This document shows positions 5,538 to 44,361 of a stretch of DNA of 64,000 nucleotides, one piece after another. Numbering within the stretch: the stretch's first letter is position 1; each line of letters begins with the position of its first letter. Position numbers and translations under genes: made by a program. The notes under the pieces were generated by a model, which saw only the letters and a list, made by a program, of their open reading frames with translations, was not told where the DNA came from and searched no databases. The stretch covers positions 334,303-398,302 of the forward strand of contig BCKL01000007.1 in assembly GCA_001600635.1 (NCBI GenBank), written 5' to 3'. Source of the DNA: Leucosporidium creatinivorum (Eukaryota > Basidiomycota > Microbotryomycetes > Leucosporidiales > Leucosporidiaceae).

Positions 5538-5863
5538 GGTCGCTTTCGAGCTCAGAGGCTCAGAATCGAGGCGTGTGAGTGCTGAAGAGCTGTAGTCGTG
5601 TAGCTGAGGTCCAGTAGCAGATCCTGCGCAATCCAACGAGTGTCGAGAGATTTAGTGCAAGTAGTGGTGGGAGTCTAACCCTAGATCTAGCCGTTCGAGC
5701 TCGAGGACTTGGTCGCGCGCCACCCTCCCACTCGCTTCGCTTCCCTCCTCATCCTTACCTCGTCTTCTTCTCTCGCCAAAGTCGATTCTACCAGGCTACA
5801 TACAAGTCTACAGTATCTCTCAAGCTTCTACTACCCTCCCACAACCCTTTCCAAGCTTTCAGA

Positions 5864-7220
5864 ATGGTGCGCTCCTTCGCTCAGCTCTTGCGGCGCTCTC
5901 TCCGAGCGCTTCTACGGCCCCAGCTGATGCATATTACTTCGATGCAGGCCGACGCGAGCTACGATTTTCTCTTCAAGTTCGTGCATGTCTTCTGCGCCCC
6001 CTTGAGCCGCTCTGTAGTCTTGCCTGGAGCAGGGAGAGAGCGAGAGCTGACCGTTGAGCGGCGCCAACTGCTCCCTTTCCTCTCCCTTCCCTGCCCTTTC
6101 TCTTCGCGCTTCCTGCATACTACAGGGTAGTACTGATCGGAGACTCAGGCGTCGGAAAATCCAACCGTAAGCAGACCGCTTCAATCGCTCGCCGAAACGT
6201 CGAGCTGAACACGCGCCTCACCCCAGTCCTTTCGCGATTCACCCGCAACGAGTTCAACCTCGAGTCCAAGTCCACCATTGGCGTCGAATTCGCTACTAGG
6301 TCCATCTCGGTCGACAGCAAGACGGTCAAGGCGCAGATCTGGGATAGTACGTCTTGCGGCCTCCGTTTCGACCTCGCCGACATTTGTGATGGGGGGAGAG
6401 CTGCTGTCTGGATTTCGCTCGGGAGGAGCAGAATAATGAGAAGGTGACTTGGGAATAAATGGGAAGCAGCGAGGTCGGCGGGATGCTGCAGAAAGGCCGA
6501 GGGAACCGACGAGAGGGAGGTGGCGCTGCGTTATCCTCAACTCTCCCCGACTATCGCAGGACAATGCTGATCCCATACATCAACTCCAACAGCCGCTGGA
6601 CAGGAGCGATACCGCGCCATCACTTCGGCGTAATTTCATCTCCCTCTTCCAGCCCGAAAGCACCGGCTGACCCTCCCCATCTCAACAGCTACTACCGCGG
6701 CGCCGTGGGAGCTCTCCTCGTCTACGACATTGCCAAGCATGCCACCTACGTCAACGTCCTCCGCTGGCTCAAGGAGCTCCGCGACCACGCCGATAGCAAC
6801 ATTGTCATCATGCTCGTCGGCAACAAGAGCGATCTGCGTCACCTAAGGGCGGTCCCTACGGAGGAGGCCAAGCTCTTCAGTCAGGAGAATGGATTGAGCT
6901 TGTGAGTTTCGTGTCGAGCGCGGTGATTCGCAGTCGCTGACCCTCAATCTTCGGCGCCGAACAGCATCGAGACTTCGGCCCTCGACGCTTCCAACGTTGA
7001 GAACGCTTTCCAGACCATCCTTACCGGTTCGTTGGACGTGGACGATCTCCCTGGACTGTTATGCTGACCCTAGATGACACCCGCAGAGATCTACCGCATC
7101 GTCTCGTCCAAGCAGCTCGAGGCCGACCCCATCTCGTCGAGGCCAGGCAACGGCGCTTCCATCGAGATCACCCCTTCGCCCAACGACGGAGGACAGAACT
7201 CGAGTGGGAAGTGCTGCTAG
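5864..7220 (+). CDS. YPT31: RAB11/Ypt31-type small GTPase
   Basis: Rab GTPase of the Rab11/Ypt31 group, which acts in trans-Golgi and recycling-endosome exocytosis. Eight exons (5864-5866, 5948-5976, 6126-6166, 6227-6346, 6593-6629, 6689-6901, 6965-7026, 7087-7220) sum to 639 nt, or 212 residues. Seen in order: P-loop GDSGVGKSN, switch I with [53 protein letters not shown], and a C-terminal CC for double prenylation. The start is inferred: ATG at 5864 is followed at once by a GTGCGC donor, giving [11 protein letters not shown]. An alternative in-frame ATG at 5942 would give [12 protein letters not shown] without that first intron. It is divergent from XAP5. A piece covering exon 2 and intron 2 is duplicated in inverted orientation at 11301-11468. 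Confidence 0.95.
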
Positions 7221-7976: not shown

Positions 7977-9625
7977 TCACTCCCACTTCGTCCACATGAG
8001 CTCTCGCCGAAAGCCGTCTTCCTGACGCAGCAATCGAACGCCCTTCTTATGCCACAGGTCCCAGTCCCCCGTTACTTTAACCTCCACAAGCTCGGTACGG
8101 CGGAGAAGATCGAGGAGGAGGAAGGAGATGGGGCTGTAGATGCCGAGTTCCAATGACTCCAGCGAAGCCAGCAAGTTGTGCGGGTGGCATGCGTTGATCC
8201 ACCCGGGAAGGGTGAGGCGAGAGGCGTGGGGGAAGCATTGGAGGAGAGAACGGAGGAAGAGGATCGAAGTCTGCACGAGACAAGAGTTAGCTCTCTACGG
8301 CGTAGCCCTGTCACTTTCAAGTTTCGGCGCTCACATTGTCCAGCGCGTTGCCGGTGATAAGGTAACCAAGAGGAGCAAGTTCCAAGTCCTTGACACTGGG
8401 TAAGGAGAGCCCGAATTCGGGATCGGCAAGCCCTGAGCACTTGACTTTGGCGAACCCGCCAATGTGCAACGCTGAGAGTGAGGTGAACGCCGAGAGGAAC
8501 TCCATCATCTTCGTATGAGGCTGGGTCAGGTCATCCCGTATTTCCAGTAGTTCGAGGCCTTGAATATCGAGGAACTCGAGAGGGCGTGCTTGGTGTTTGT
8601 TGAGCTAGAAGCGAACAGTGTCAGCGTATCGCTCGGCGCCGGCTTTTCGCCTTCCTCGCGCCGAAGCTTACCGCAGGGTCGAACACCTGGCGTAGCTGAT
8701 CCAGTCGCTCGGCCAGCGCAATAGGATCATCTTCTTCACCGTAAGTTTGGTAGAAGGACAAGGAGTGCAACGTCTCGGCGCAAGCGGCGATGGCAGCGCA
8801 GCCGAAGTCGTCGAGCCGTACTTCGAGGGAGCGGAGTGTCGGTCCGTTCTTGAACAGTGAGTGAGGGATGGTCATATATCTGGCGACCAGCGAGGTGAGA
8901 CCAGGGAGGTCGACAGCGAAGGAGAAACTCGTGTCCTCGACGTCGTAGAATTGTTCGAATTGGAGCCAGCGCAGGGATCGGAGCGACTTAAGGGCGATGG
9001 TGACCGCTTTTGGCAGAGTCTGGCGTTCCTCCTCGTCGTCTTCATCGTCCTCGACATGTGGGTAGATGCTGAGGCGGGTGAGGTGGCTGAAGCCGGACGA
9101 AAGGTGGACGGCCGACATGGCTGAGAGAGGCCAGGTGAGGGTGTACATGACTGAGCGGACAAGGGGAGCGGTGGAAGTGGTGATGAGGTGTGCCATCAAG
9201 GTGTCGTGGGATTCGAAGTCCCCTGCCAGGACGACCTGCCTCCAGATCCACGCTTTGCACACGGGGCCGAAGCGCCGCGCCGAGAGTTGCAGGCTTCGAA
9301 GATCCTGCTTGTTCTTGAGAAGTCCAGCAACGGCGCTGAGCAGCTCGTTGGGAAGCGACAAGAGCGTATTGCGAGATCTGTAGCCGTGTCGACGACGCGT
9401 TAGCTCGCGCCTTCGGCTTCCCATCTTCGCGTCGACGTCTCACGGCTCGAAAGTCTGCAGCAAATCACGCGTATCAGCCCTCTCATCAGCAGCAAGCTCG
9501 TCCTCCGTTCTAGCAGCGTCGCCGCCCTGCTTCGAAGCTGTTCGAGGGAAGAGACGCGTCAGGAAAGGTGCGCGTCGAGCGGGTTAAGAGGTGCAGGAAG
9601 TGGGCTTACCTTCAAGAGCAGCCAT
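7977..9625 (-). CDS. F-box/LRR-like protein
   Basis: Predicted substrate adaptor of an SCF ubiquitin ligase. Five exons (9625-9610, 9537-9444, 9377-8672, 8604-8335, 8270-7977) sum to 1380 nt, or 459 residues. The F-box lies around residues 38-80: NTLLSLPNELLSAVAG, then KNKQDLRSLQLSARRF and VCKAWIWRQVVL. Downstream the protein is leucine-rich with irregular LRR-like repeats (LTRLSIYP, LRSLRWLQFEQF, LTSLVARY, LRSLEVRLDDFG, VKDLELAPLG, LESLELGIYS). The start was placed at a 16 nt first exon because introns with good branch sites (GAGCTAACGC, acceptor CTACAG) join it in frame. An ATG at 9424 opens the same frame but lies inside the second intron. The substrate is unknown. It is the last gene before the repeat-bearing block. 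Confidence 0.8.
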
Positions 9626-10030
9626 CTGTGCGTAAGCAAGCTTCGTAAATGTCGAGTTCAGCGAGCGAGTCGAGGCAGCAGCGAGCGCGAGTGAGACGGA
9701 GGAGGGAGAGCTGGGAAAGCGAGGTCGAAGCGGGCGAGCCTTGTGAGGATGGAGTCGGTACAGCCTAGCAGAGGGTTGCTCTGGCCTTGTGTATATATAT
9801 CAATCGAAGCTATAGGAGCTTCACCACAGCCCGCTGTAGCCTTTGCAACCGGTAGCAGCGCCCGAACTCCCTTTCCGACTTCGCCGAGCTTCAAGGCGAT
9901 TCTTGCAGGGGAGTATCGAGGTCTCGCTTCCTCTGTATAAATAGCATGAGTGACATTGTGCTCGTGTTTGCTCTTCTGATGCCTACCGTGCAGTGCGAGA
10001 GCCACCTCTTCGAGTGCGGCGAAGAGAGGG
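9626..10030. other. gene-free flank of repeat copy A
   Basis: Upstream region of the F-box gene, about 400 bp. A short TATATATAT stretch lies near 9791-9799 and another AT-rich patch (TATAAATAG) near 9934. Both are unusual in this GC-rich window and could be core promoter elements, although their distance from the F-box start is large. No supported gene was found. Confidence 0.4.
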
Positions 10031-11235
10031 AGCTCGGCTCACCCTTCTCGAGCTTGATCAGGGTCGCTGCAGAGTCAGGCTGTGGCTCAAAGAGTGGCAT
10101 GGAGCTCTGCTGCACCTGACCGGATAACCTCTAGCCCACCTTTCATGAGAAGTCGTGAGAGAGAGTCTGAGCTTGGCGAGTTGAAAATCGAGCCCGGCTT
10201 GCTCTCTTCTCTCTTTCTCTCCTGCCACATCCTCCTGGAGTGGTCGTTGCGTGTAGCATCCACAAGCATGATGCTCTCGCTCGTGTGAGTGCAGGCCTCT
10301 GTAAAAGGCTCTGCCACCTGGATCAAGGCCCGACTCTTCCTCGCGTGAAGCTGCTCGTCGACCTCCAACCTCTCTCAGCGAAGGATCGCAGAAGCAGTCG
10401 CTCCCGCTCTTGTAGCGCTTGGGAGTCGAGCTCACTCACAATCCTGGGACGACCGCTTCAAGTCTCCCAACAGCTCTCGCAGCCTGCTCTTCGCTGAGCA
10501 AGCTCGAACTGAGATTGAGCGCCCGAGGAGCTCGCTGCCCTTTGCTCCTCCTTAGCGATGGGAAGACCGCTATAGCCTTCCCACTCCAACCCCAGGTCCT
10601 CCTAGTGGTGCACATTTACAGGCTGCTGCTCACACAGCAGCCTTTCGCAACCGAGGAGCCGCGAGCAAGTGCTCCTCACCTTCAAGCGTCGGACTCGACG
10701 GGAGGCGCGCTACAAGTCCTCCCTCTCCTGCAGCTCTCGAGACTGTGGGCTTCTCGGTAGTCGCTAGGTGTGTGGTGAGGCCTACAGGTGAGTCCTCACT
10801 TCCTCGCTGGCTCGGATGTAGTGCAGCGGAGCGCTGCGGGGAGAGGAGGAGGGGGCGAGGAGGAATGGGAGCGGCGGAGGGTGCAGCAGAGAAGCTCGGG
10901 GAGTAGGAGGGGCTGTACCTCAGCGGAACCTACGTAGAGACTATGCAGCTGATCTTCGTTTACGCTCGTCTTTGCAGCGTCGTCGACGTTGCTCTCGTTT
11001 CCAAGCTCGGCGGCGGTTCCCTCGATAAGGCAAGTCCCTCTCGCTGCGCCCGCCACTCCCTCCTGTCAACCCCGAACGTTAGAGCTTTCAAGTACAGCCG
11101 ACTGTCGGGATGAGCTTCGAGAGCTATGGGGTTTGGAAAGGCGAGGGACGAAGCTTGCTTTTGCCGAGCCATCAGCAAGCGTCCGAATCGACGCTTCGCA
11201 CGGCGAGGCTAGCAGGCTGATAACTCCCGAGAGTT
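10031..11235 (+). repeat. dispersed 1.2 kb repeat, copy A
   Basis: This segment recurs in inverted orientation at 37119-38324. Read side by side, roughly the first 1.07 kb match at about 96-99% and the last 130 bp (toward 11235) at about 85%, with homology stopping at AGCTCGGCTCACCC on one side and a near-palindromic ACTCCCGAGAGT on the other. Both copies carry a perfect 9 bp hairpin (here 10620-10643). I see no long terminal inverted repeats, no target-site duplication and no recognisable transposase, polymerase or integrase. Open frames of 70-125 codons occur in both copies, but small length differences between copies shift frames, so protein coding is doubtful. It may be a non-autonomous mobile element or a segmental duplication of unknown type. 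Percent identities are estimates by eye. Confidence 0.85.
10620..10643. other. perfect hairpin in repeat copy A
   Basis: AGGCTGCTG, a six-base loop, then CAGCAGCCT. This is a 9 bp perfect inverted repeat, kept in the other copy of the element at 37711-37734. It could fold in RNA or cruciform DNA. Its function is unknown. Confidence 0.7.
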
Positions 11236-11300
11236 GCCAGTCATGCTCCTGCTAACCCTAGAGTGTGCTGCTCATTGCTTGAGTGTGAGCCGAGAGAAGA

Positions 11301-11468
11301 GCGAAGAGAAAGGGCAGGGAGGGGAGAGGAAAGGGAGCAGTTGGCGCCGCTCAACGGTCAGCTCTCGCTCTCTCCCTGCTCCAGGCAAGACTACAGAGCG
11401 GCTCAAGGGGCGGCAGAAGAGATGCACGAACTTGAAGAGAAAATCGTGGCCGCGTCGGCCTGCATCGA
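11301..11468 (-). pseudogene. inverted duplicate fragment of RAB11 exon 2 and intron 2
   Basis: These 168 bases match the reverse complement of 5939-6107 with only a handful of differences (about 95% by eye). The source is the end of RAB11 intron 1, the whole 29 nt exon 2 and most of intron 2 of the gene 5.4 kb away. The copy lacks all other exons, so it cannot encode a GTPase. It retains the CTGAC branch word of the parental intron, which shows genomic DNA rather than spliced RNA was copied. It lies 65 bp beyond the edge of dispersed repeat copy A. Edges are sharp at GCGAAGAGAA (11301) and TGCATCGA (11468). Confidence 0.88.
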
Positions 11469-34105: not shown

Positions 34106-34327
34106 TGACAGGGGAGCAGTGAGATAGACTTCAGCGGATACAGACCGTGAACGAGAATTTAGAGCTCGGCCGTTTTGGGTCGGTCTTCGAAGTGAGCGAT
34201 AAGGACAGATTGAGATAACACTACTACGACAACAATTATACGAAGCTACTAACGATTAGATACTGAGATCACGCTGATGCCCGACTAAGCTCCTCTCCAA
34301 CCCCTCGCCGAACTCTTCTCCCCCTCC

Positions 34328-35429
34328 TCACCACTCCTCAACGATGGCAAAGCATCCCTCGTGCTGGACGATGGGGGTAGCAGGAAGTGCCCTCGGATGG
34401 TAGCTGCTGACCTCGCCGATGCTTGCGACGCCCATCTTGACGTCCTGCTCGGGCGAAGTGCGGTCGGCGAAGGCGAGAGCGGCGAGCGAGTTGACCGAGT
34501 TGGAAGGCGAGGGACCGGCAAAGAGGTCCTCGAGGCCGGTGGTGGTGGTGGTGGTGAGAGTGTGTGTGTTGACGTATCCGATGCGAGCGAGGCCCGACTC
34601 AATGTCCTTGGCGAGTGGGAGGCGATCGCCAAAGCTGGCGAGGCTGGCGAGAGAGTGGGTGGAGGACGAAGGGGTGGGGCCGCTGAAGAGGGTGGCGAAG
34701 GGGTCCGAGATGGTAGTAGGCGGCTTCTCGAATGAGGAGGGGACGACCTTGCGCTGAACGCGAGCGGTGCGGCGGAGAGGGGAGATGGGAGGAGGGAGCT
34801 CGGTGAAGCGGTCCTCGGTGGAAGTGAACGGAGTGGGTGACTCGACCCTGTCGAAGCTGGCGACCGAGTCAAAGATGGGCGAAAGCGTGCGACTCGAGCG
34901 GGAGGAAGCGTTAGGCGAGGCGGGCGCCGAGGGCGAGAAGAGCTGCTCGGAGGGAGTGCTGCAGCGAGGGAGCTCCTTGTGATGGTGGTGCTCCGAAGGA
35001 GCGTTGTCCGAGCAGTTGGAGGTGTTAGAAAGCTCGGAGGCGGAGGAGGGGAAGTCGGGCTGCTGCTGCTGAGCCGAGAGCGAAGTTGCGGGTTGCGACT
35101 GCTCGGCGTCGAGGCTGGGGAGCTGCACCTTGTGCTTGATGGGGAAGGTAGGCTGGCGAGGAGGGGCGGTAGGGTTGCAGAGCTCGATGGCGAACAGCTT
35201 GTCGTCGTACATCTGCGCGAGTGAGCCGAAGGAGAAGCGAGGTCAGACTTTTTGCGCTCGAGGAATGTGGCTNAGCGAGAAGGAGGAAGCTCACCTGTTC
35301 GAGAGCTGGCGACATCGACTTGCTCACACTGTAGGGTGCAGAGATGGTGNCGATCTTGNTGCTACTCNTGCGAGCGACCTTGGAGCGAAGCTTGGACGAG
35401 AGAGCGGCGAGCGACTTGGAGAAGGCCAT
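34328..35429 (-). CDS. orphan Ser/Thr-rich protein with a duplicated ~40-residue unit
   Basis: I do not recognise this protein. Two exons: MAFSKSLAALSSKLRSKVAR to SMSPALEQ (35429 to about 35296), then from 35212 MYDDKLFAIELCNPTAPPRQ on to the stop at 34328-34330. The N-terminus is basic and amphipathic. The middle is Ser/Pro/Gln-rich and probably disordered. Near the C-terminus two related units stand in tandem: SDPFATLFSGPTPSSSTHSL... ending GLARIGYV, and LEDLFAGPSPSNSVNSLAAL... ending GVASIGEV, joined by a short Thr run. The tail HEGCFAIVEEW is distinctive. Ambiguous bases occur in the first exon (35273-35367). A regulatory or scaffold role is only a guess. Confidence 0.65.
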
Positions 35430-37118
35430 TTTGGAGCACAGCGAGTTGGGAGGTGGTGAGGTGGGTGGTAGGCGAGGTGCACTAGTGTGAGATGAAGCTA
35501 TGTAGGCTGGTAGACGATAGGGCTGCAGCGCTGAGATAAGCGAGAGCCGAAGCGAGAGAGCAGTGAGAAGTAGGAAGGAAAGAGAGGTCGAGCTGGCCGA
35601 GGGCCAATTTGTAGCCCTGTCGCATCCTCTGAGAGCCGCAGAGAGATGGCTGGTCGCTGAGCTTGGGCCATAGGAGTAGTACTAGTCAATAGGGGTACAG
35701 CACCATCTCCGCAGACCTCACAGCTGCCTGTCGACCCTCGACCGAGCCCGTCCTCTGCGAATCCCCTCTTCTGCGTCCTCTCCCACCACAACAGCGGCCT
35801 CTTAGCCGACTGTGGAAGGTGACTAGGGTGGAATGGCCAGCTGAGAGGATCGAAAGAGAGCCTCTGCCAGTCTTTCGGCCCAGCAGAACTCCTCCCTCGA
35901 TCTCGGCGACGACGACGGCGCAACCTGCCCGAGCTGGTCGGCGCCGCTCAGCCAGGAGAGCACTGAGCTGATCTTCCACTACCTCACCGAACTCGTCAGA
36001 CCTCCTTCAGCGCTCTCCTGCTCGGAGGAAGGGACTCGCCTAGATCGGACACTGCACCGAGCGATAGGGGGTCTGTGCGAAAAGCGGTCGCCCGNTTNNT
36101 TCTCCAAGTCGGCTGGAAGAGCNTTNAAGTGTACCGCACTACATATCGACATCGCATCCGAGCTGCTCAGTTCGAAGAGAAGGCATTTCGACCTCCTGCT
36201 CTCCTGCTGAGGTCTGCGCTGGACAGCCGAGCCGAGCAGAGCCTGTAACCAAGCAGACTGGGTGTCTTGGAGAACGGGGAAGCGTTGACGAGAGAGAAGG
36301 ATTGATCAAGATGAGCGAGGAAGCCAAGAGAGCTCGCAGAACACGTCGGGCGTTTGAGAGGCAAGGCATTACGAACCGAGTAAGCGCCGAGTTAGTCCTC
36401 GAGACTAATGGTCAATTGTAGGTCTGTCTACTCGGCTACATGCGCCAGTGAGAGGGGAGAGCTTCAATGTCCTTACAAGATCACTTCAACCCTCGGCTCT
36501 TCGGTCAAGCCCTTTGGACCACTCGACCGAGCCTACTGCTTGGCTGCGCCGAGCACCATCTTCCCCCTGTCTACCAGTCACGCAGCTCGCAGAAGGACAC
36601 NGAGAGCTTCTGGATCGACTTACAACTCCTTCAGAGCTCTCCTGGGCTGCTTTCCAGCCTGTAGCATGTGCCCTCTTCCCCCCCTCGAGCCGAGCTCTGC
36701 GGAGCAGTCGCTCTACCGCCAAGCTGCCCTTGCTCTCTGTCTTACACCTCGAGCAATCTCGGCGTCCCCAATNCTGCGTNCAGACCACCTCCACGCCGCG
36801 ACGAACCGCCAAGCAACGCAAGAGCTCCCCTTTAGGGTGACAGCGCCAACCTTTGCTCGGCGAGCAGCTTCGCCTCGCGCTCCTCGTCTGACAAGCTCGA
36901 GGATGACAGCTGACTCAACTGTGCAGTAGGATCACGGGTGCTAATGCCCCTCTGTAGCTCATCGGCAGCGTGGTAGTGAGAACATCGGCAGAGTTGAGAG
37001 GTCAGCGCTCGATTGGGCGGAAGGAGAAAAGGCCCGCCGCTTCCCTCCTCCGCAATCCCCTCAGCCGAAGCGTAGAGCGCGACCCGACGCAGCAAAAGGC
37101 TATGATGGCGTGGTCGGG
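35430..37118. other. gene-free block with ambiguous bases
   Basis: A 1.7 kb stretch upstream of the orphan gene with no supported gene. Ambiguous bases cluster at 36095-36125, 36601 and 36774-36780, pointing to poor assembly. Open frames through it (for example 36408-36929) carry ambiguous codons, have no recognisable motifs and do not continue across good splice sites. TCTGTAGC occurs at 36951. It is probably relic or repetitive sequence next to dispersed repeat copy B. Confidence 0.5.
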
Positions 37119-38324
37119 GACTCCCGGGAGTCATCAGCTTGTTCGCCTCGCCGGGCGAAGCGTCAATTCGAACACTCGCTCATGGCTCGGCGAAAGCAAG
37201 CCTCGTCCCTCACCTTCCCAAACCCCATAGCTCTCGAAGCTCATCCCGACAGTCGGCTGTACTTGAAAGCTCCAACGTTCGGGGTGGACGGGAGAGAGTG
37301 GCGGGCGCAGCGAGAGGGACTTGCCTTATCGAGGGAACCGGCGCCGAGCTTGGAAACGACAGCAACGTCGACGACGCTGCGAAGACGAGCGCAAACGAAG
37401 ATCAGCTGCATAGTCTCTACGTAGGTTCCGCTGAGGTACAGCCCCTCCTACTCCCCGAGCTTCTCTGCTGCACCCTCCGCCGCTCCCATTCCTCCTCGCC
37501 CCCTCCTCCTCTCCCACCAGCGCTCTGCTGCACTACATCCGAGCCAGCGAGCAAGTGAGGACTCACCTGTAGGCCTCACCACACACCTAGCGACTACCGA
37601 GAAGCCCACAGTCTCGAGAGCTGCAGGAGAGGGAGGACTTGTAGCGCGCCTCCCGTCGAGTCCGACGCTTGAAGGTGAGGAGCACTTGCTCGCGGCTCCT
37701 CGGTTGCGAAAGGCTGCTGTGTGAGCAGCAGCCTGTAAATGTGCACCACTAGGAGGACCTGGGGTTGGAGTGGGAAGGCTATAGCGGTCTTCCCATCGCT
37801 AAGGAGGAGCAAAGGGCAGCGAGCTCCTTGGGCGCTTCAGTCTCAGTTCGAGCCTGCTCAGCGAAGAGCAGGCTGCGAGAGCTGTTGGGAGACTTGAAGC
37901 GGTCGTCCCAGGATCGTGAGTGAGATCGACTCCCAAGCGCTACAAGAGCGGGAGCGACTGCTTCTGCGATCCTTCGCTGAGAGAGGTTGGAGGTCGACGA
38001 GCAGCTTCACGCGAGGAAGAGTCGGGCCTTGATCCAGGTGGCAGAGCCTTTTACAGAGGCCTGCACTCACACGAGCGAGAGCATCATGCTTGTGGATGCT
38101 ACACGCAACGACCACTCCAGGAGGATTCGGCAGGAGAGAAAGAGAGAAGAGAGCAAGCCGGGCTCGATTTTCAACTCGCCAAGCTCAGACTCTCTCTCAC
38201 GACTTCTCATGGAAGGTGGGCTAGAGGTTATCCGGTCAGGTGCAGCAGAGCTCCATGCCACTCTTTGAGCCACAGCCTGACTCTGCAGCGACCCTGATCA
38301 AGCTCGAGAAGGGTGAGCCGAGCT
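37119..38324 (-). repeat. dispersed 1.2 kb repeat, copy B (inverted)
   Basis: Reverse-complement partner of 10031-11235. Homology begins at a perfect 14 bp palindrome GACTCCCGGGAGTC (37119-37132) and ends at GGGTGAGCCGAGCT (38311-38324). Identity is highest over the part away from the palindrome and lowest in the 130 bp next to it. It contains the same conserved hairpin at 37711-37734. As in copy A, no protein domain or classical terminal repeats were found. The two copies are 26 kb apart and opposed, so recombination between them would invert everything from RBM42 to the orphan gene. Class unknown. Confidence 0.85.
37711..37734. other. perfect hairpin in repeat copy B
   Basis: AGGCTGCTG, TGTGAG loop, CAGCAGCCT. 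It has the same 9 bp stem as in copy A, with the loop reverse-complemented as expected from the inversion. Confidence 0.7.
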
Positions 38325-38626
38325 GCTCCTCTGCGCCGAGCTTCAGCGCCGGTCGAGCAGGTCCTCAGCTGCGCAAGATCTCCTGACTGATATTAGCAGT
38401 CCTTGTCAAGCCTTCTTGAACAAGGTGCAAGTCACCTCTTCCTCTTGTATCTCGTTCTCCCTCTCTTCCTCTCTCCCAGTCGGCGACGAGTTGTTGATTT
38501 GTTGAGCAAAGATGGTAATTGCTTGGATAGTCATTATCTACAGCAGACCCGTCCGATGGGGGAATAATCAACATTGTAAGATGGAGTTGGGTCTGTCTAG
38601 CTGGTCCGCACGCCGAGAAGGATGCT
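38325..38626. other. 3' flank of the HAD phosphatase gene
   Basis: About 300 bp between repeat copy B and the HAD stop. Nothing coding is supported. It includes an AT-richer stretch (TTGTTGATTTGTTGAGC near 38492-38508) that may be part of the 3' untranslated region or polyadenylation signal. Confidence 0.4.
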
Positions 38627-42980: not shown

Positions 42981-44361
42981 CTAGCGCCGAACGGGCGGCG
43001 TCTCCTTCCCTTTGGCGTTTGTGAGAGTCGAAGTGAGAGTCGACGTCTTGCCATCGACCACGGTCGTGATGAGGGTGACTTGAGGTGTTGCCCCGGCCCC
43101 GGGAGCGGCGCCTGCGAGTGTCGAAGTGAGTGTCGACGTCTTGCCATCGACTACGGTCGTGATGACAGTAACTTGGGGTGTTGCCCCGGCCCCAGGAGCG
43201 GCGTTCGTGAGTGTCGACGTGAGGGTGACGGGCTTTCCGTCGACGGAGGTCGTAATGAGCGTGACCTGAGGCTGTCCAGGCGTCTCCTTCCCTCCGGCGG
43301 TGCCCGTGAGAGTCGAAGTGATGGTCGTGATCTTGCCGTCGACCTCGGTCGTGATCAGCGTAACCTGCCCTGCGCCCGTTTCGGCGCCCGTTTTGGTGCC
43401 GGTCTCTGTACCCTTTCCGGCAGTTCCCGTCGAGGTTCCAGTACCGGTTCCCGTAGCGCCTGTGGCTCCTGTAGCTCCAGTGGCGCTGTAGACGAATCGA
43501 GCCGGCGATTAAGAGCGAGCGAGAGGTCAGCTTCGGCGAAGCGTTTCTCGGCGCTCGTCAAAACCGCACGAGGAGCAGGGGACTCACCCAGTACTGCCTC
43601 CTATAGCAGGTGAAGTGGTTCCGGCACCAGTCGCTCCAGTGGTCTGAGGCGAAGTGGCTGTTGGGCAAAGAGCGAGTCGATATCAGCGCTGGCCTCGGTC
43701 GAGTGATAGCTTCTGCGAACTCACCAGCCGACGTGCCTCCAGCCGTCAAAGGGGTTGTACCAGTGCTTGCGGTGGGATCGCTGCTGAACCAACCCTGCTT
43801 GTAGGCGTAGAATCCTCCACCGCACGCGGCGATGAGGACGACGAAGATGACGGCGACGATAATGATGGTCCCCGAGCCACCGGAGCTCTACATTTCATGG
43901 TACATGTCAGCTACAAAGCGAAGAAGGAAGATAGAAGCACGCACCTGAGCTCCCGTGGTATTGTCGACGCTCCTCATGAGCCACGAGCGCTTCACCTTCT
44001 TGGCCTTGCTCTTGACGGCCAGCTTCCTCCTCTTCTTTCCCGATCCGACGAGGCGCTCTTCGTCCGAATCGCCGTCGCTCGACTCGGACGACCCCAAGTC
44101 GAAGGAGTCGCCTCGGTGTTGTGGAGACGAGCGAGAGCGGCTGCTGCTGGCGGGCTTCTCCTCCTTGTCGGCGGAGCCTTCATCGTCCTTGTAGGACCCT
44201 TGACGAGAAGGAGGTAGGGCGACGGCCGAGGCGGAACGAGCGACGTCGTCGCGGTAGACTCCTTCAGCCTGGTCCGAGTCGCTAGCCGATGATTCAGAGT
44301 CCGACAAAAAGTCGTCCTCCTTCTGGCGAAGGGGGACGGCTTTGTGCTGAGTAGGCTTCAT
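42981..44361 (-). CDS. single-pass membrane protein with tandem ITT-VDGK repeats
   Basis: The N-terminal 140 residues are hydrophilic and acidic/Ser-rich, ending in a basic patch (GKKRRKLAVKSKAKKVKRSW). One transmembrane helix follows (GTIIIVAVIFVVLIAACGGG). After it come Thr/Gly/Ser-rich stretches (SATGATGATGATGTGTG) and four tandem units of about 32 residues, each containing QVTLITT-VDGK-TLTSTLT. Such Thr/Ser-rich VDGK repeats are known from fungal Mid2/Wsc-like and secreted surface proteins. No signal peptide is seen, so a type II topology with the repeats outside is the simplest reading. A cell-wall sensor or anchor role is inference. An upstream in-frame ATG (44385) could add eight residues. 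It is divergent from NDUFAF3. Confidence 0.75.
42990..43375 (-). repeat. four tandem ~96 bp coding repeats
   Basis: DNA repeats encoding the VDGK units of the membrane protein. Neighbouring copies share long identical stretches such as TTGCCATCGAC and the flanking TGTTGCCCCGGCCCC, showing recent duplication or conversion between units two and three. Confidence 0.7.

What the first reader, a model, noticed from the sequence alone, without database searches (positions are those of the whole stretch)
10031..11235. Inverted pair of 1.2 kb dispersed repeats with no recognised class
Copy A here and copy B at 37119-38324 are reverse complements at high identity over about 1.2 kb. They sit in the two largest gene-poor blocks of an otherwise gene-dense window. 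No transposase, reverse transcriptase, integrase, long terminal inverted repeat or target-site duplication was found. Small length differences between copies shift the shared open frames, so the repeat does not look protein coding. It may be a non-autonomous element of a new or poorly known family, or a noncoding transcribed repeat. This is the strongest candidate for something undescribed in the window.
Basis: seen in the sequence. Interest (0 to 1): 0.75.

Follow-up and report, generated by a model that had tools for sequence, protein, structure and literature searches.

The report
Fifty-copy conserved noncoding fungal repeat
The inverted pair is two of about fifty copies of a conserved, non-protein-coding 0.5 kb element in what looks like a fungal genome, in which copies that lie near each other on a chromosome resemble each other most; it may be a family of undescribed structured RNAs, but transcription has not been shown.

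Summary
The pair is real: 10017-11234 and 37120-38338 are inverted, 96.7% identical. It is not a two-copy repeat. The genome (27.7 Mb, probably a fungus) holds about 50 copies that share a sharply bounded ~535 bp noncoding core (10206-10741; reverse 37614-38149). Words from its two ends hit the same loci (49 and 48 hits, controls 0), so no truncated copy was found. The core diverges about half as much as adjacent repeat DNA or less. It has no TIR, TSD or A-tail, no Rfam match and no coding signal. Core similarity falls with distance along contigs (C7 Mantel rho 0.81, 0/2000), and near-identical tracts point to gene conversion. Evidence for RNA structure is moderate: local hairpins, a repeated hairpin motif, one arm-swap result, a core-only C>T/G>A asymmetry; covariation is weak. 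Best reading: dispersed structured noncoding RNA genes, spread and homogenised locally. An old non-autonomous element or a DNA-level chromosomal element remain open.

The parts
10017..11234 (+). Copy A, the stretch shared with copy B
   Evidence: 96.7% identity to 37120-38338 inverted
37120..38338 (-). Copy B, inverted
10206..10741 (+). Conserved core of copy A (about 50 copies in the genome)
   Evidence: 49-copy alignment: 17 blocks of 30 columns at 0.74-0.97, 13 of them 0.89 or more, against 0.41-0.70 outside; genome counts
37614..38149 (-). Conserved core of copy B
   Evidence: same alignment; 31-mer reverse at 38005-38035
10320..10350 (+). Near-invariant 31-mer: 38 exact of 49 genome hits, 0 control hits; predicted to be locally unstructured
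10398..10429 (+). Hairpin V2, variable in sequence
   Evidence: swap test not significant
10445..10469 (+). Hairpin Ha, weak first instance of the GGGA..CCGCU..AG..UCCC motif
10524..10550 (+). Hairpin CGAGGAGC..GCTCCTC, first instance
10559..10583 (+). Hairpin Hb, second instance of the GGGA motif (GGGAAG/CTTCCC)
10620..10643 (+). Hairpin V4, variable; significant arm-swap result on both strands
   Evidence: z -3.5 on +, -3.3 on -; coordinates
10652..10677 (+). Hairpin CGAGGAGC..GCTCCTC, second instance
10699..10723 (+). Hairpin Hc, third instance of the GGGA motif (GGGAGG/CCTCCC)
10990..11234 (+). Right block, a second and less conserved repeat; also found at two loci without a core (C9:737 kb, C6:360 kb)
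7990..11234 (+). Extent of copy A shared with C7:321 (and 7989-10889 with C7:222); includes the F-box-like ORF 8621-9424 (-)
34161..38343 (-). Full unit of copy B, right end shared with C7:180, 263, 321 and 430
34328..35212 (-). Exon 2 of the C7-specific gene family (294 aa, MYDDKLFAIELCNP...), no Pfam match
35290..35429 (-). Probable exon 1 (MAFSKSLAALSSKLRSKVAR...); the inner boundary is approximate and the stretch holds ambiguous bases

Best explanation
The shared core is one member of a family of about 50 dispersed genes for a ~0.5 kb structured noncoding RNA, read from copy A's + strand. Shown: about 50 copies with both ends present, a core slower than adjacent repeat DNA, no coding signal, and relatedness that decays with distance along the contig. 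Partly supported: the product is an RNA made of local hairpins, including a repeated GGGA-stem hairpin, around an invariant unpaired segment; and copies exchange sequence by ectopic gene conversion. Inferred: the RNA is transcribed and functional, and copies spread by local duplication. On C7 the element was duplicated together with a linked protein gene, giving ~4.2 kb units. Copies A and B are a recent inverted pair within that C7 group.
For: Copy number and intactness: 49 and 48 hits for two words from opposite ends, all within the same 50 loci, controls 0. Constraint: core divergence below the adjacent flank in 52 of 55 C7 pairs (median ratio 0.47), below the further flank in 32 of 36 (0.36), and below the right flank in 18 of 20 pairs in other contig groups (one tie, one reversed). 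Not coding: no 3-periodicity; 93 of 572 indel runs are multiples of three. Structure: consistently negative local folding z at certain windows across 28 representatives while the most conserved segment is positive; fold z -2.1 (+) and -3.2 (-) for copy A; alifold energy beyond 12 column-shuffled controls; arm-swap z -3.5 (+) and -3.3 (-) for hairpin V4; a covariance model of the Hb+V4 region gives 37 weaker matches (E 0.001-0.09), 35 of them at one upstream place in the core, traced to a repeat of hairpin motifs. Strand: C>T exceeds G>A in the core (0.63 against 0.44 column-alleles per site, p = 0.002, 49 copies) but not in three flank sets (p 0.72, 0.88, 0.29), as G.U tolerance or transcription on + would give. 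Local relatedness: nearest core on the same contig for 36 of 46 (shuffled 8.3); Mantel C7 0.81 (0/2000), C3 0.47 (1/2000), C6 0.53 (42/2000). Conversion: C7:430 and B, 59 kb apart, have a 1499-column run without mismatch (9 N columns) beside stretches 15-19% diverged.
Against: No transcription data. Covariation is nil (term 1.7 and 0.6 with no stabilising gain; -0.1, with 2 of 30 pairs changed on both sides). Arm-swap tests of V2, V2b and Hb on + were not significant (303, 310 and 241 of 2000), V4 is as good on the minus strand, and the test does not correct for shared ancestry. The stem wobble bias (48 + against 23 -, p = 0.004, almost half of it from V2, reversed in one stem) is close to the whole-core bias (163:114). 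The C>T asymmetry is absent among the C7 copies alone (p 0.63) and A>G against T>C shows none. The internal-repeat alignment scores 1.0-3.8 sd above shuffles in five copies but never above the best of 300 shuffles. Ambiguous bases at the same place in paired copies suggest that part of the near-identity of tracts may be an assembly effect. No promoter or terminator was identified and Rfam gives nothing.
Confidence: 0.42

Rival explanations
1. An old non-autonomous mobile element (a SINE-, MITE- or Helitron-like relic) of which only the core is still recognisable everywhere; flanks were co-duplicated later.
For: About 50 dispersed copies with constant core ends, in both orientations; beside unrelated genes where neighbours could be named (a lactonase and an LYR-family protein among 9 ORFs scanned).
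Against: No TSD, TIR or A-tail; no truncated copy found; the core is slower than flanks that are themselves shared between copies; relatedness follows linear distance; none of the 16 reverse transcriptase matches lies on C3, C6 or C7, which hold 36 of the 50 copies.
Confidence: 0.27
2. A DNA-level chromosomal element (protein-binding array, boundary, loop or pairing site): the palindromic GGGA..TCCC and GAGGAGC..GCTCCTC motifs are binding sites, kept at fairly even intervals.
For: Repeated palindromes inside the core; spacing more even than random placement on C7 (CV 0.55, fraction 0.027) and C6 (0.39, 0.014), weaker on C3 (0.63, 0.064), not corrected for three tests; constraint without coding; hairpin V4 signal equal on both strands.
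Against: 535 bp of dense conservation is long for a binding array; the core substitution pattern is strand-asymmetric; copies were found on only 11 of 63 contigs. Even spacing could also come from loss of close duplicates.
Confidence: 0.2
3. A segmental-duplication and gene-family by-product: the core is merely a conserved regulatory leader carried with duplicated genes.
For: On C7 the core lies about 2.2 kb upstream of a gene family with intact frames and dN/dS 0.35-0.57, and F-box-like ORFs flank A and C7:180 (both below Pfam's cut-off).
Against: The gene family was found on C7 only (12 of 12 matches) and one member (C7:498) has no core in the 3.7 kb examined upstream; other contigs carry 37 of the 50 cores.
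Confidence: 0.08

Closest known systems
Dispersed multicopy noncoding RNA gene families that evolve in concert (for example dispersed 5S rRNA or snRNA genes; recalled, not tested here)
   Same: Dozens of intact copies, constrained RNA-sized unit, divergent flanks, homogenisation
   Different: No sequence or structure match in Rfam; longer; relatedness graded over hundreds of kb
Non-autonomous transposable elements (SINE, MITE, Helitron relics)
   Same: Dispersed, noncoding, constant core ends
   Different: No TIR, TSD or A-tail, no truncated copy found, core slower than co-duplicated flanks
Ectopic gene conversion between linked paralogs (PMC3924832 and PMC2277409, passages read)
   Same: Conversion declines with physical distance on the same chromosome
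   Different: The rice paper puts the fall-off near 35 kb; here the trend persists among C7 pairs more than 150 kb apart (rho 0.70), so serial local duplication is probably also involved

Membership tests
MITE or other TIR DNA transposon | Terminal inverted repeats | tested here: not met
   Longest inverted match between the consensus core ends is 6 nt
MITE or other TIR DNA transposon | Target-site duplication | tested here: not met
   At the core edges: own 5.04 nt, swapped 5.15 nt; 0 of 49 copies with 8 nt or more. Tested for the core, not for the longer units
SINE / LINE-derived element | A-rich or simple tail, frequent truncation | tested here: not met
   A6/T6 run just right of the core in 2 of 49, left 0 of 49; both end words at the same 50 loci
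SINE / LINE-derived element | Internal RNA polymerase III promoter | not tested
   No motif scan was run; no tRNA genes in the window or in 48 loci
Helitron | TC start, CTRR end after a hairpin, insertion between A and T | tested here: inconclusive
   The last 40 bases of the consensus hold no CTRR (read), but the edges are not known to the base and single copies were not scanned
Known RNA family (Rfam 15) | Match at gathering score | tested here: not met
   0 matches in the window and in 40 of the 48 loci L009-L056; best permissive match E 0.097, none up to 0.5 for the C9 copy
Structured noncoding RNA gene | Conserved fold with compensatory changes | tested here: inconclusive
   V4 arm-swap significant; other hairpins not on +; alifold covariation about zero
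Structured noncoding RNA gene | Transcript | not testable with these tools
   No expression data available
Protein-coding gene | Codon periodicity and frame-preserving indels in the core | tested here: not met
   Variability by phase 0.087/0.085/0.083; 93 of 572 indel runs multiples of 3

The most novel reading that the evidence does not exclude
A new class of chromosome-neighbourhood RNA or DNA element: about 50 copies of one conserved ~535 bp unit, tens of kb apart on a few contigs, each copy resembling its neighbours so that the sequence carries a record of position along the chromosome. It could serve as a regional address, for example in homologue pairing or domain organisation, through a structured RNA made at each site.
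Probability: 0.12. Interest if true: 0.85.

Novelty: new variant of a known kind. Interest (0 to 1): 0.5.

Why it matters
If the core is a functional RNA or DNA element, a compact genome keeps some 50 intact copies of an undescribed 0.5 kb noncoding unit, and the distance-graded similarity gives a natural record of how dispersed copies spread and homogenise. If it proves to be an old mobile element, it is one without visible truncated copies and with an anomalously conserved core, which also needs explaining.

Tried and rejected
Two-copy segmental duplication or assembly artefact: rejected, about 50 copies with different flanks. Mobile-element ends: no TSD, TIR or tail at the core. An empty-site test at the core-less gene copy C7:498: homology starts within the unit shortly before the gene, so it gives no empty site. 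Known RNAs and tRNAs: none. Coding core: rejected. Whole-core RNAalifold: consensus energy beyond column-shuffled controls (-77.0 against -54.3 on +, -64.1 against -49.4 on -; 12 shuffles each), but no covariation gain. Hairpin arm-swap: significant for V4 on both strands and for Hb on - only (8/2000); V2 and V2b not. Strand from G.U counts: 48:23, but the background is already 163:114, so it is weak. Link to the pheromone-receptor locus: STE3 matches are on C25, where no core was found. Viral collection: 0 exact matches to a 25-base word. Literature: seven searches listed nothing that describes such a repeat; only listings were seen, apart from passages of two papers on gene conversion. The held library lacks most subscription papers, so absence there is weak. 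Relatives in other species could not be searched: the tool says G000 has no relatives there.

Rows dropped: the core distance matrix used 46 of 50 copies; three with N and C7:321, which lacks the 31-mer anchor, were left out. The alifold test used 47, alignment A1 46. The folding z windows used 28 representatives chosen by me. The C7 flank ratios used 11 copies, 55 pairs, and 9 copies, 36 pairs, for the further flank. Rfam was run on 40 of 48 fetched copy loci.

Full report
WHAT IS THERE. The window is C7:334303-398302 of a 27.7 Mb, 63-contig genome. The inverted pair is confirmed at 96.7% over 1219 columns. Searching the genome with copy A gave 44 matches, a lower bound. A 31-mer from the conserved 5' part gave 49 hits with 3 mismatches allowed and 0 in the reversed control; with C7:321, found, that makes 50 loci: C3 15, C7 13, C6 8, C5 4, C1 3, C2 2, and one each on C8, C9, C14, C15 and C30. 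A 23-mer from the 3' part gave 48 hits, all at these loci. First-look candidate numbers for the two ends (50 and 49) agree. No truncated copy was found, although heavily diverged fragments could escape.

ANATOMY. Aligned, 49 copies share a core of about 535 bp with abrupt edges: 17 blocks of 30 columns have conservation 0.74-0.97 (13 of them 0.89 or more) against 0.41-0.70 outside. Outside the core, sequence is shared mainly within neighbourhoods of one contig, or weakly between contigs: about 170 bp on the left in many copies, and a right block (10990-11234) that also occurs at two loci without a core. On C7 the shared unit is far longer: five copies share 4.2-4.5 kb with nearly the same right end. 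That unit carries a two-exon gene whose second exon (294 aa in copy B, 34328-35212) is open in 5 of 5 copies examined, with dN/dS 0.35-0.57 in the ten pairs. All 12 matches to its protein lie on C7, and it has no Pfam match. Copy A instead shares 7990-11234 with C7:321 at 77%, including an F-box-like ORF (E 0.0023, below the curated cut-off).

THE CORE IS NOT CODING AND IS CONSTRAINED. Variability does not depend on codon phase, and 93 of 572 indel runs are multiples of three. In C7 pairs the core is less diverged than the next 500 bp in 52 of 55 and than a further 700 bp in 32 of 36, with median ratios 0.47 and 0.36; the ratio is 0.76 in the closest pairs. In other contig groups the core is below the right flank in 18 of 20 pairs, with one tie and one reversed (C6:834/866, 0.050 against 0.038). 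Constraint and preferential conversion of the core would both give this.

RELATEDNESS FOLLOWS POSITION. For 36 of 46 copies the nearest core is on the same contig (shuffled labels 8.3, maximum 19). Mean core distance rises from 0.047 below 50 kb (8 pairs) to 0.129 above 400 kb (74 pairs). Mantel tests give C7 rho 0.81 (0/2000), C3 0.47 (1/2000) and C6 0.53 (42/2000). Among pairs over 150 kb apart rho is 0.70 on C7, 0.31 on C3 and 0.27 on C6. Divergence along the unit is patchy: C7:430 and copy B, 59 kb apart, have a 1499-column run without mismatch beside stretches 15-19% diverged, and C7:263 and C7:321 a run of 778; C7:180 and B drop from 22% to 1-4% within 200 bp. This looks like gene conversion. 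The runs hold 9 and 10 N columns, some N in both copies at the same place, so part of the identity may come from assembly of near-identical copies. Declining conversion with distance is known for paralogs (PMC3924832 and PMC2277409, passages read); the rice paper puts the fall-off near 35 kb, so serial local duplication probably contributes here. Spacing is somewhat more even than random placement (fractions C7 0.027, C6 0.014, C3 0.064).

IS IT AN RNA? For: negative local folding z at certain windows across 28 representatives, with the most conserved segment predicted unstructured; whole-core alifold energy beyond 12 column shuffles on both strands; hairpin V4 folds better with its own arms than with swapped arms (2/2000 on +, 1/2000 on -); a GGGA-stem hairpin motif occurs three times in the core (10445, weak; 10559; 10699), with A-U in Hb against G-C in Hc at the fifth stem pair, and a GAGGAGC hairpin twice. 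The core, but not three flank sets, shows more C>T than G>A per site (0.63 against 0.44, p 0.002; flanks p 0.72, 0.88, 0.29). Against: covariation is nil; V2, V2b and Hb fail the swap test on +; the wobble bias hardly exceeds background; C7 copies alone lack the C>T asymmetry and A>G against T>C shows none; the internal-repeat alignment is 1.0-3.8 sd above shuffles but never above the best of 300. Neither the swap test nor the substitution test corrects for shared ancestry. I rate the RNA reading as most likely but unproven. No Rfam family matches.

IS IT A MOBILE ELEMENT? No target-site duplication, terminal inverted repeat or A-tail at the core. None of the 16 reverse transcriptase matches lies on C3, C6 or C7, which carry 36 of the 50 copies. 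Intactness, slow core evolution and positional relatedness are untypical of dead elements, but an old element with local movement is not excluded.

VERDICT. Observation confirmed and enlarged. The pair is two members of a family of about 50 constrained, noncoding ~535 bp elements, some of which travel in larger units with a protein gene. The most likely function is a structured noncoding RNA gene family; a mobile relic and a DNA-level chromosomal element are the main rivals. In the papers that could be searched nothing like it was listed.

Noticed in passing
window 5939-6112 and 11296-11468: A 174 bp inverted duplication (96%) of the start of what reads by eye as a Rab-type GTPase gene (about 5840-7220) begins 62 bp beyond the right end of copy A, perhaps a scar of a rearrangement that truncated A.
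   Followed up: partly
window 34328-35429 (-): C7-specific two-exon gene family with no Pfam match, dN/dS 0.35-0.57 among five copies; one further member at C7:498 kb has no core nearby.
   Followed up: partly
window 43014-43391: Four tandem copies of a 93 bp unit (66-88% to the reference).
   Followed up: no
L063 (C9:735800-738300) and L064 (C6:358600-361200): The right block of the repeat (about 300 bp, 82-85% to C7 copies) occurs without a core, so it may be a separate repeat family.
   Followed up: partly
window 8621-9424 (-) and L012:1-537 (-): F-box-like ORFs (both below Pfam's cut-off) flank copy A and the C7:180 copy.
   Followed up: partly
G000 C26, C12, C24, C32: 11 of 16 reverse transcriptase matches lie on these four contigs, perhaps centromeric or heterochromatic regions, away from the core copies.
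   Followed up: no
C7:430 and window copy B units; C7:263 and C7:321: Long mismatch-free tracts between units tens of kb apart, holding ambiguous bases at the same places in both copies: gene conversion, an assembly effect, or both.
   Followed up: partly
all cores, e.g. window 10206-10741: C>T exceeds G>A per site in the core but not in its flanks; the effect is absent among the C7 copies alone.
   Followed up: partly
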